The translations under genes and the position numbers were made by a program. Below, piece after piece: positions 22,530 through 30,655 of a stretch of DNA of 33,555 bases. The notes below the pieces were generated by a model. That model made no database searches and was not told the origin of the DNA. It saw nothing but the letters and a program-made list of their open reading frames with translations. Positions within the stretch are counted from its first letter, which is position 1, and the number at the start of each line of letters is the position of its first letter. This DNA is from Solirubrobacterales bacterium (GTDB lineage: Bacteria > Actinomycetota > Thermoleophilia > Solirubrobacterales > Solirubrobacteraceae). The DNA lies in NCBI GenBank assembly GCA_019239445.1, contig JAFAZV010000084.1, forward strand, positions 1 through 33,555, read 5' to 3'.

Positions 22530-22736
22530 ATGAAGCTCAGCGCCCGCAACCAGCTCACCGGCACGGTAACCAGCATCAATCGCGGCGAAGCGATCGCCAA
22601 CGTCGCCATCGACGTGGCAGGGGAGCGCCTCGTGGCTTCGATAACCGTTGAGGCCGTGCAGGAGCTCGGGCTTGGCGAAGGCACTCAGGTCACGGCGGTG
22701 ATCAAGGCCTCCGACGTGATCCTCGCCACCGAGTAG
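22530..22736 (+). CDS. mop: Mop-family molybdopterin-binding protein (molbindin, single TOBE domain)
   Basis: 68 aa 'MKLSARNQLTGTVTSINRGEAIANVAIDVAGERLVASITVEAVQELGLGEGTQVTAVIKASDVILATE'. Embedded in a longer listed ORF (22197..22736); purine-rich RBS upstream. Confidence 0.93.
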   Translation: MKLSARNQLTGTVTSINRGEAIANVAIDVAGERLVASITVEAVQELGLGEGTQVTAVIKASDVILATE

Positions 22737-22756
22737 CGGCGCCGGGCAGCGCCGTT
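22735..22756. terminator. Hairpin between convergent mop and encapsulin genes
   Basis: CGGCGC-CGGGCA-GCGCCG (22737-22754), extendable by a G-U and an A-T pair. Confidence 0.45.
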
Positions 22757-23555
22757 AGGCGCTCAGCGTCACCGCTGCCTCGGGCGTGGCGACGTGGAAG
22801 CTGAAGCTCTCCTCGAGGTACATCCGCACCACATCCGCGTCGTGGCTCGTATAGCCGAGCGAGAGATCCTGCCCGGACTCGAACAAGAAGTCGCCACCGC
22901 GCAGGCTGAGCACGATCGCGCCCCGCACGCCTGGCGCCCACACGATCGGACCTTCGAGGATCTTGCGCAGGTGCTCGAGCAGCGGGTAGCCGCCGTGCTC
23001 CGCCGTCTCGACCACACGGGTGTACTGCTCGCCGCCGAGCGCCAGCGCGTAGGAACCGCTGACGCCGTGCTGGAGCAGGCGCTGGACGGCCGCCGCGACC
23101 GGTCGCGGGTACTCATCGGGAACGGGGCCAAGCGGGATCGGCTCGTGAGGCGAGACCTCGCTGATCCCCGCGAGCGCGCCGGGCCAGCCATGGAACACGG
23201 CGATGTTCTCGGCCACGGCAATCTGATGCGCGGCCTTGTCGAGAGGCGCGAGGTCTGGATCTGATGCGCCCCGATCGGCATCGCGCAGCTCGCTGAGCGC
23301 GAGCTCGAACTCGGCTCGCACCTCGACCAGCGGGAGAACGCGGCGGCGCAGCCCGCTGACCCCGGTGCAGGGGGCCTCGCCAAGGGGCGCCGTGCGGCCC
23401 AGGTTGGTGGCGGAGTGCTCCCAGCCGTGCGGCCCGGAGAAGTCGACCAACTTGCGCGCAGCCAGCGGCGGCGATAGCCGCTCGCGCGCCTCGTCGTCGA
23501 GCGCGGTCCAGGCCGCATCGCTGATCGGGGCGAGTCCTCGTAGTAGGTGGTTCAT
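22755..23555 (-). CDS. Family 1 encapsulin nanocompartment shell protein
   Basis: Resembles Thermotoga-type encapsulin along its length: 'MNHLLRGLAPISDAAWTALDDEARERL...RKLVDFSGPHGWEHSATNLGR', 'GLRRRVLPLVEVRAEFELALSEL', 'GGDFLFESGQDLSLGYTSHDADVVRMYLEESFSFHVATPEAAVTL'. Start is the ATG overlapping the upstream stop. Confidence 0.95.
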   Translation of the reverse strand: MNHLLRGLAPISDAAWTALDDEARERLSPPLAARKLVDFSGPHGWEHSATNLGRTAPLGEAPCTGVSGLRRRVLPLVEVRAEFELALSELRDADRGASDPDLAPLDKAAHQIAVAENIAVFHGWPGALAGISEVSPHEPIPLGPVPDEYPRPVAAAVQRLLQHGVSGSYALALGGEQYTRVVETAEHGGYPLLEHLRKILEGPIVWAPGVRGAIVLSLRGGDFLFESGQDLSLGYTSHDADVVRMYLEESFSFHVATPEAAVTLSA

Positions 23556-23941
23556 CGCTCGATTCCTCTCAAGCTCCGTATTCCCAGGGAGCCGTCTTCC
23601 GTCGCGCCTTCGCTTCCGGACTCGCCCTCGAGGACCTCGGCCTCGACCGTCTCGGCTCGCTCGACCACGTCGCCCGGTTGGAAGAGCACGCCTTGAGCGA
23701 TCTTCCTCCAGGGCGGCGTCCGCCGCAGCAGCATCTCGAGGTCCATCGAGAAGTGCTTGAACTCTTCTCCCTGCGCATCGCGCATGACCGCGGCGGCGTC
23801 GGGATCGCGTTCGAGCGCGAGGCGCTGCTCGTACCAGCCGATCGCCTCGGCCTCTTCGGTCAGCGACGCACACAGGCGCGCGAAGGTTCGCGTCGCCGAT
23901 GGCAGCTCTTCCGGCGGCTCGTGATACTGATCAAAGCCCAT
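23552..23941 (-). CDS. Encapsulated ferritin-like protein (EncFtn), encapsulin cargo
   Basis: 'LTEEAEAIGWYEQRLALERDPDAAAVMRDAQGEEFKHFSMDLEMLLRRTPPWRKIAQGVLF' has the WY motif and E-x-x-H. C-terminal cargo peptide 'DGSLGIRSLRG'. Confidence 0.94.
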   Translation of the reverse strand: MGFDQYHEPPEELPSATRTFARLCASLTEEAEAIGWYEQRLALERDPDAAAVMRDAQGEEFKHFSMDLEMLLRRTPPWRKIAQGVLFQPGDVVERAETVEAEVLEGESGSEGATEDGSLGIRSLRGIER

Positions 23942-27719: not shown

Positions 27720-28226
27720 ATGAGCACGACCGTGCCGGTACGCCTGAAGGTCAACGGCGTCAAGGAAGAAATCGATGTGCAGCCGCGCCTGCTGCTCGTC
27801 CACGCGCTGCGCGACAGGCTGGGACTCACCGGCACGCACGTCGGCTGTGACACCTCGAACTGCGGCGCCTGCACTGTTCATCTCGACGGGCGGGCGGTGA
27901 AGTCGTGCACCGTACTCGCGGTTCAAGCCGACGGGGCCACCGTGACGACGATCGAGGGCATGGGCTCGGAGGATCAGCTGCATCCGCTCCAGGAGGCGTT
28001 CTGGAACGACCACGGACTGCAGTGCGGCTACTGCACACCGGGGATGATCATGGCCGCCGCCGGCCTGCTGGCCGAGAACCCGAATCCGACTGAGGAGGAG
28101 GTCAGGCACGCACTCGAAGGCAACCTGTGCCGGTGCACGGGCTACCACAACATTGTTCGCGCGGTGCTCGATGCCGCCAAGACGAAATCAGCCACGGTTG
28201 CGCAGCAGCAGGAGGTGACGGCATGA
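27720..28226 (+). CDS. coxS: [2Fe-2S] small subunit of CO dehydrogenase/xanthine dehydrogenase-family molybdenum hydroxylase
   Basis: '[15 protein letters not shown]', '[12 protein letters not shown]', '[10 protein letters not shown]', both [2Fe-2S] clusters. Confidence 0.95.
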
Positions 28227-30655
28227 GCGCAGGCGGTCCCGAGGCCGAGATCGCGCGAATTGCCGCTAAGGCGGCGCATGAGCGTGACACGGCCGCAGCC
28301 GGCCTCCACGTGGGGCAAGCGCTGCGCCGCAAGGAGGATCCCCGCCTGATAACCGGTCGGGGGCGGTACGTCGACGATCTCACGTTGCCGGGCACGTTGT
28401 GGGCGGCGCTGGTCCGCTCGCCCGAAGCTCACGCGAGGATCGTCTCGATCGACTCGAGCCAAGCCACCGAGCGAGCGGGAGTGCACGGTGTGTTCACCGG
28501 GCAGGACATGACCAACCTGCAGGCGCCGCTGCCGATGGCGTGGGGGCCGCCGGGAGTCGAGGTCCGTAACCCGCCGCACTGGCCGCTGGCGCGCGACAAG
28601 GTGCGTTACGTCGGCGATCCCGTCGCGGTCGTCATCGGCGAGGACCGCTATCGCGTAATGGACGCAGTCGAGGACGTCCTCGTCGAGTACGAGGCGCTTC
28701 CCGCAGTTGTCGACCCTGAGGCAGCGCTCGAGGAGGACGCCCCGCTGGTTCACGAGGAGCTCGGGACGAACAAGATCCACGAGTGGCCGCTCGAGGGAGG
28801 CGACGTCGAGCAGGGCTTTGCCGAGGCCGAGGTGATCGTCGAGCGCCGCGTCGTCAATCACCGTACCTCGGGTGCGCCGATCGAGCCGAGGGCTGTGCTG
28901 GCCGACTACCGGGCGGGCTCGGTCACGGTGTGGAGCTCGACTCAGATTCCGCACTACACGAGGCTGTTTCTGGCGCTGATGCTCGGCATCAGCGAAGAGA
29001 AGGTGCGGGTGATCGCGCCTGAGGTCGGCGGCGGCTTCGGCGCCAAGCTGCAGATCTACGGGGAAGAGATCCTGATCCCGTGGTGCTCGCGCCGCCTCGG
29101 AATGCCCGTGAAATGGGTCGAGACGCGCAGCGAGCACATGGCGACGAGCCACCATGGCCGAGACCAGATCGCGCACGTGCGGATGGGTGCGAAACGCGAC
29201 GGGACGATCACCGCCTGGCACGTGCGGATCCTCGCCGACATGGGGGCGTACAACATGTTCCTCACCCCGCTGATCCCGTCCCTCGGGGCGTTCGTGATGG
29301 GCGGGTGCTACGCGATCCCGAACGTGAAGACGGAGATCGTCGGCGTGTTCACGAACAAGATGTCGACGGACGCGATACGCGGAGCCGGCCGGCCCGAGGC
29401 GACGCACATGGTCGAGGTGACCCTCGAGCAGCTGGCTCAGGAGCTCGGAATGGATCGTCTGGAGCTGAGACGCAAGAACTTCATCCCCGAAGATGCGTTC
29501 CCGTACCAGTCGGCGACCGCCGTCGTCTACGACTCCGGCGACTATGAGAAGACGCTCGCGCGTCTACTCGAACACGTCGACGTTGACGCTTTCCGCCGCG
29601 AGCAGGAGCAGGCGCGGCGGCAAGGCACCCTCCGCGGCCTCGGCTTCTCGACCTACACGGAGATCTGCGGACTCGCACCCTCGCGCGTCGCAGGTCCACC
29701 GATCGTCGGCGTGCAGGCCGGTTTCTGGGAGTCCGCGATGGTCCGTGTGCACAACACCGGTGCCGTCACCGTCTACACCGGCAGCTCGCCGCATGGCCAA
29801 GGCCATGAAACCGGCTTCGCGCAGATCGCCGCCGACCGGCTCGGCGTGGATCCGTCAGTCGTCGAGGTCGTGCACGGGGACACCGGTTTCGGCCCTGAGG
29901 GCCGGGGAACCTACGGCTCGCGGTCCCTGGCCGTGGGTGGCGAGTCGGTTGCGCAGGCGGCCAATCAGGTGGCAGCGAAGGCCAAGCTGATCGTCGCCCA
30001 CAAGCTGGAGGCCGCACCTGAGGACATCGAGCTCCGCGACGGGAAGTTCGCTGTCCGGGGTTCACCTGACAAAGGCATGTCGCTGGCGGACGTCGCGGGC
30101 GAGGCCTATCTCGGCATCGACTTGCCCGAGGGGATGCAGCCGGGGCTCGAGATGACCAACTTCTACGAGCCGGAGAACTTCGTGTTCCCGTTTGGTGCTC
30201 ACGCCTGCATGGTCGAGGTCGACACGGAGACGGGGAAGGTCGACGTCGTGCGGTACGTCGCAGTGGACGACTGCGGCCCGGCCATCAACCCGATGTTGAT
30301 CGCGGGGCAGGTGCATGGCGGGATTGCGCATGCGATTGGGCAGGCTCTGTATGAGCGCATCGCCTACGACGAGAACGGACAGCTCGTGACCGGCACGTTC
30401 GTCGACTACGCCTTGCCGACGGCTGCCGAGCTGCCCAGCTTCGAGACCGACCGAACCGAGACGCCTTCGCCCGTCAACTCGCTTGGCGTCAAAGGAGTCG
30501 GCGAAGCCGGAACGATCGCGGCCAGCGCCGCGGTCACAAATGCTGTGATCGACGCGTTGCGCCCGCTCGGCATCACCTACATCAACATGCCGCTCACTCC
30601 GATGCGGGTCTGGGAGGCGATACAGGAGGCGCAGAACGGAGGTGCGGCGGCATGA
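28223..30655 (+). CDS. coxL: Molybdopterin-binding large subunit, form II CoxL-like
   Basis: Start ATG overlaps the coxS stop. '[14 protein letters not shown]', active-site loop 'AIRGAGR' (29372-29392), '[12 protein letters not shown]'. Confidence 0.94.

What the first reader, a model, noticed from the sequence alone, without database searches (positions are those of the whole stretch)
22755..23941. Two-gene encapsulin nanocompartment: EncFtn cargo translationally coupled to a family 1 encapsulin shell
Seen: a 129-aa EncFtn with the WY and E-x-x-H ferroxidase-type motifs is followed by a shell protein resembling Thermotoga encapsulin. The cargo stop and shell start overlap as ATGA (23552-23555). 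Established: EncFtn-encapsulin pairs form iron-mineralising compartments (Rhodospirillum rubrum type). Inference: this is a complete minimal iron-storage/oxidative-stress organelle. The family is known; the interest lies in this host lineage and context.
Basis: partly seen in the sequence, partly recalled or inferred. Interest (0 to 1): 0.82.

Follow-up and report, generated by a model that had tools for sequence, protein, structure and literature searches.

The report
Two-gene ferritin-loaded encapsulin iron compartment
A soil actinobacterium carries a two-gene protein nanocompartment (an iron-oxidising ferritin-like cargo plus its virus-like shell) of a known kind; its only unusual part is that the cargo belongs to a little-described branch in which the iron site on the outer face, conserved in the studied relatives, is altered.

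Summary
On the minus strand, 23552-23941 encodes a 129-aa EncFtn and 22755-23555 a 266-aa family 1 encapsulin shell; they overlap as ATGA at 23552-23555. Profile searches, PDB searches and AlphaFold/Foldseek agree: the cargo matches R. rubrum and Haliangium EncFtn, the shell matches T=1 family 1 encapsulins. All ferroxidase-centre ligands (E30, Y37, E60, H63) and the C-terminal targeting peptide (GSLGIRSLRG) are present. The pair is conserved in Solirubrobacterales and other Actinomycetota: 68 of 71 shell-linked cargos carry the peptide and 51 of 71 have the 4-base overlap. The compartment is therefore ordinary in kind. The ferroxidase centre is intact, but the His57 and Glu64 equivalents of the proposed outer iron-entry site are replaced by Asp and Lys. 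This clade also has short members with no targeting peptide and no nearby shell, including on conjugative Bradyrhizobium/Rhodopseudomonas plasmids beside heavy-metal efflux genes. Shells close to the window's carry DyP peroxidase instead, so cargo is swapped. Assembly, loading and iron chemistry remain untested.

The parts
23552..23941 (-). EncFtn cargo gene, 129 aa, decamer-type encapsulated ferritin
   Evidence: PF22277 8.5e-18 over cut-off; R. rubrum EncFtn by phmmer 1.7e-16; AlphaFold model pLDDT 84 matches 5da5/5l8g/5n5f/3k6c, TM 0.86-0.89 by target. TIGR04535 hit is 76 bits, below its cut-off of 125
23753..23857 (-). Ferroxidase region EEAEAIGWY...DAQGEEFKH (residues 29-63): E29 E30 E32 W36 Y37 E59 E60 H63 kept; D55 and K62 replace R. 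rubrum His57 and Glu64
   Evidence: alignment to R. rubrum EncFtn; residue roles from PMC5012862 and PMC11202242
23555..23587 (-). C-terminal targeting peptide GSLGIRSLRG and last residues (part of residues 117-129)
   Evidence: aligned to the R. rubrum and Haliangium peptides SLGIGSLKG/R; present in 68 of 71 shell-linked relatives, 0 of 18 shell-less ones
23552..23555 (-). ATGA overlap: cargo stop TGA, shell start ATG
   Evidence: sequence; 4-base overlap in 51 of 71 related pairs (33 ATGA, 17 GTGA, 1 TTGA)
22755..23555 (-). Family 1 encapsulin shell gene, 266 aa, HK97 fold
   Evidence: NF041155 275 bits over cut-off 100; PF04454 7.8e-76; AlphaFold pLDDT 90, pTM 0.86; Foldseek top hits are T=1 encapsulins, TM about 0.9

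Best explanation
A two-gene iron-storage nanocompartment. The cargo is made first and the shell is translated from the overlapping start. Cargo decamers form ferroxidase centres at their dimer interfaces, and the C-terminal GSLGIRSLRG peptide binds the inside of a T=1 shell of 60 subunits. Fe2+ enters through shell pores, is oxidised at the E30/Y37/E60/H63 centre and is mineralised inside, where it is kept away from peroxide. Shown here: gene identity, intact ligands, targeting peptide, predicted folds, conserved pairing. Inferred: assembly, loading, chemistry, coupling. In this cargo clade the outer site is D/N...K instead of H...E, so iron probably reaches the centre from the inner C site (E29/E32 kept) rather than from the outer C' site.
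For: families and PDB relatives; predicted structures match EncFtn and T=1 encapsulins; ligands conserved in nearly all rows; residue 64 changes once on the tree; targeting peptide and overlap; the pair recurs in dozens of Actinomycetota while the flanking genes do not; published function of the residues.
Against: No experiment. The cargo is below the NCBIfam cut-off for the encapsulin-associated ferritin subfamily. Glu64 and His57 are replaced, so iron entry may differ from characterised EncFtns. Shells within the same well-supported clade carry DyP peroxidase, so the shell alone does not say iron. The genome also has a clear ferritin-family protein (127.6 bits) and two weak hits, so this need not be the main iron store.
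Confidence: 0.9

Rival explanations
1. A protective compartment for oxidative or metal stress rather than iron storage: the cargo oxidises Fe2+ (or handles another divalent metal) with little mineral stored, and the altered outer site reflects different metal traffic.
For: Outer site H/E to D/K throughout the clade; short clade members sit beside heavy-metal efflux or iron-export genes on plasmids; the host has a separate ferritin-family gene.
Against: The ferroxidase ligands are unchanged, and the window has no metal-efflux gene next to the pair.
Confidence: 0.15
2. A decayed or silent copy of the pair.
For: Decayed relatives exist: an internally deleted cargo (L036) and a deletion-fused cargo-shell frame (L081/L140).
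Against: Both window frames are intact, all ligands and the targeting peptide are kept, and both models fold with high confidence.
Confidence: 0.03
3. The shell mainly houses another cargo encoded elsewhere, such as a DyP peroxidase.
For: Shells in the same well-supported clade carry DyP directly upstream (L007, L011, L013, L034).
Against: This genome has no Dyp_perox_C match, and the EncFtn with its targeting peptide is the overlapping neighbour.
Confidence: 0.03

Closest known systems
Rhodospirillum rubrum EncFtn-encapsulin (Rru_A0973; PDB 5da5, 9rzu; PMC5012862)
   Same: Same two components, cargo fold, ferroxidase ligands, SLGI-type targeting peptide, T=1 shell relative
   Different: Cargo only about 34% identical; His57 and Glu64 of the outer metal site are Asp55 and Lys62 here
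Haliangium ochraceum EncFtn-encapsulin (PDB 5n5f, 7oe2)
   Same: Same fold, peptide and shell type (shell 43% identical by Foldseek)
   Different: H...E outer motif described for bacterial EncFtns rather than D...K
Nitrosomonas europaea NE0167 (3k6c), short EncFtn (s-FLP)
   Same: EncFtn fold, decamer
   Different: No targeting peptide; the K-type clade has its own short, shell-less members
Thermotoga maritima encapsulin (3dkt)
   Same: Family 1 HK97 shell
   Different: More distant shell (E 3e-44) than the R. rubrum and Haliangium shells; not the nearest relative
Actinobacterial DyP encapsulins
   Same: Closely related shells, and the same peptide type on the cargo
   Different: Cargo is a haem peroxidase

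Membership tests
Family 1 (classical) encapsulin shell | NF041155 / PF04454 match over curated cut-off | tested here: met
   275 bits vs 100; 255 vs 24.3
Family 1 (classical) encapsulin shell | HK97 fold | tested here: met
   AlphaFold pLDDT 90; top Foldseek hits are all encapsulins, TM about 0.9
Family 1 (classical) encapsulin shell | self-assembles into a closed particle with cargo | not testable with these tools
   needs co-expression and TEM
EncFtn (encapsulated ferritin with targeting peptide) | EncFtn-like profile and two-helix EncFtn fold | tested here: met
   PF22277 64 bits vs 27; TM 0.86-0.89 to 5da5/5n5f/3k6c
EncFtn (encapsulated ferritin with targeting peptide) | ferroxidase ligands Glu32, Tyr39, Glu62, His65 (R. 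rubrum numbering) | tested here: met
   E30, Y37, E60, H63
EncFtn (encapsulated ferritin with targeting peptide) | C-terminal targeting peptide SLGIGSLK/R | tested here: met
   SLGIRSLRG
EncFtn (encapsulated ferritin with targeting peptide) | HxxxEExEH motif stated as conserved in bacterial EncFtns (PMC11202242) | tested here: not met
   DAQGEEFKH: His57 is Asp, Glu64 is Lys. Not a catalytic-ligand requirement, hence a variant
NCBIfam TIGR04535 encapsulin-associated ferritin-like protein | score over curated cut-off 125 | tested here: not met
   76.4 bits
EncFtn (encapsulated ferritin with targeting peptide) | ferroxidase activity, iron mineralisation in the shell | not testable with these tools
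   needs assay

The most novel reading that the evidence does not exclude
The window's cargo represents a second deep class of EncFtn (D/NxxxEExKH) that joined family 1 shells separately from the R. rubrum class, using the same targeting peptide, and that feeds iron to an unchanged ferroxidase centre without the outer C' glutamate pocket.
Probability: 0.35. Interest if true: 0.5.

Novelty: new variant of a known kind. Interest (0 to 1): 0.33.

Why it matters
Two models place iron entry into EncFtn at different sites: the inner C site (Glu31/Glu34) and the outer C' site (Glu61/Glu64 with His57), as reviewed in PMC11202242. The window's clade is a natural, widespread variant that keeps the first and replaces Glu64 and His57 of the second, so it can separate the models. 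Its short, shell-less members and the DyP/EncFtn swaps on related shells also bear on how cargo and shell become partners.

Tried and rejected
Iron-regulator (IdeR-like) box upstream of the cargo: the best match in the window (10 of 19) is no better than shuffled background, and relatives share no motif beyond Shine-Dalgarno-like sequence. Functional link to neighbours (aldo-keto reductase, Mop/TOBE protein, Na+/H+ antiporter, decarboxylase): not conserved around relatives. Second cargo of DyP type in this genome: none found. No held paper mentions encapsulin together with Thermoleophilia or Solirubrobacter; supplementary tables of published encapsulin surveys could not be read, so K-type sequences may already be listed there.

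Full report
What is there. The window is contig 434 of a 4.3-Mb genome in 462 contigs, 92.5% complete with 6.9% contamination. The closest named relatives of its shell are Solirubrobacterales MAGs (79% identity).

Identity. The cargo hits Pfam EncFtn-like at 8.5e-18, over the cut-off, and R. rubrum and Haliangium EncFtn in the PDB at 1.7e-16 and 3e-13. It reaches only 76 bits of the 125 demanded by TIGR04535. The shell hits encap_f1 at 275 bits, over the cut-off of 100, and R. rubrum, Haliangium and other T=1 shells ahead of Thermotoga. AlphaFold models (pLDDT 84 and 90) match EncFtn crystal structures (TM by target 0.86-0.89) and T=1 encapsulins (TM about 0.9).

Active parts. Aligned to R. 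rubrum EncFtn, the ferroxidase ligands Glu32, Tyr39, Glu62 and His65 (roles in PMC5012862) are E30, Y37, E60 and H63. The inner C-site pair Glu31/Glu34 is E29/E32 and the tryptophan is W36. The C-terminus GSLGIRSLRG lines up with the published SLGIGSLK/R peptides. Across relatives, 68 of 71 distinct shell-linked cargos carry this peptide and none of 18 shell-less ones does. The 4-base overlap occurs in 51 of 71 pairs.

Context. No flanking gene of the window recurs consistently around the 80 related shells, and no regulatory box was found, so the two genes are the unit. The genome holds another, clear ferritin-family gene at C195 and two weak hits, and no DyP peroxidase.

The part that departs from the textbook. 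The review PMC11202242 describes HxxxEExEH as conserved in the bacterial EncFtns it treats, with Glu61/Glu64 forming an outer C' pocket proposed as the iron entry site and His57/Glu61 forming flanking sites. The window has DAQGEEFKH: His57 is Asp and Glu64 is Lys. Of 108 EncFtn rows, 41 are H..E and 65 are D/N/S..K, and the state at residue 64 changes once on the tree, across a branch with 100% SH-aLRT (columns 57 and 64 were left out of the tree). The tree has few columns and a midpoint root, so only the deep split is firm. Both sides of the split hold shell-linked members with the peptide and short members without it. In the Thermoleophilia family f7, all 17 EncFtn-bearing genomes sampled lack a convincing PF04454 shell; only one has weak fragments. 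Short K-type proteins of 104-105 aa are also encoded on Bradyrhizobium and Rhodopseudomonas conjugative plasmids and on a Gemmatirosa replicon. Where annotated they are called 'hypothetical protein', and on the plasmids read they lie next to CadA/CzcA efflux genes or the iron exporter gene mbfA; no shell was found in the stretches fetched.

Cargo exchange. In the shell tree, the well-supported clade holding the window's shell (95% SH-aLRT, 18 rows) mixes K-type EncFtn and DyP cargo. Frankia and Acidimicrobiaceae shells carry the R. rubrum-type EncFtn, and Pseudonocardia-group shells carry a small cargo with the peptide that is a hemerythrin in the two cases tested.

Mechanism. I take the standard mechanism as by far the most likely: peptide-directed loading of EncFtn decamers into a T=1 shell, ferroxidation at the dimer interface, mineral stored in the shell lumen. 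Shown by computation: identity, fold, ligands, peptide, conserved pairing. Inferred: assembly, loading, coupling, chemistry. The outer-site change makes inner-site entry the better guess for this clade, but that is untested.

Verdict. The compartment is real and of a known kind. Interest is moderate to low for the pair itself.

Noticed in passing
L087-L104, L159 (Thermoleophilia genomes, mostly family f7): Short K-type EncFtn (about 104-110 aa) without targeting peptide and without a shell gene nearby; in family f7 no convincing PF04454 shell genome-wide.
   Followed up: partly
L173:5001-5315, L175:4001-4315, L176:4001-4315, L174:4001-4315: Short K-type EncFtn on conjugative Bradyrhizobium/Rhodopseudomonas plasmids beside CadA/CzcA metal efflux genes or mbfA, and on a Gemmatirosa plasmid; called hypothetical protein where annotated; 62-68% identical to the window cargo.
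   Followed up: partly
L081:5866-6867, L140: Cargo and shell joined in one frame by what looks like a deletion (first half of EncFtn followed by shell sequence lacking its middle) in a Solirubrobacterales MAG.
   Followed up: partly
L036:5795-6001: EncFtn with an internal deletion that removes most of the ferritin domain but keeps the targeting peptide (69 aa) upstream of an intact shell.
   Followed up: no
L007:4910-6004, L011:4937-6004, L013:4301-5392, L034:4949-6004: Shells in the window's shell clade have a DyP peroxidase cargo with the same targeting peptide instead of EncFtn.
   Followed up: yes
window 27720-30655; L016:104-556; L002:488-985; L076, L077: A molybdenum hydroxylase-type oxidoreductase (2Fe-2S and large subunit) lies upstream of the pair in the window, and related genes lie near a few other encapsulin loci; may be chance.
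   Followed up: no
window 22530-22736: Stand-alone 68-aa Mop/TOBE molybdopterin-binding protein, convergent with the shell gene.
   Followed up: no
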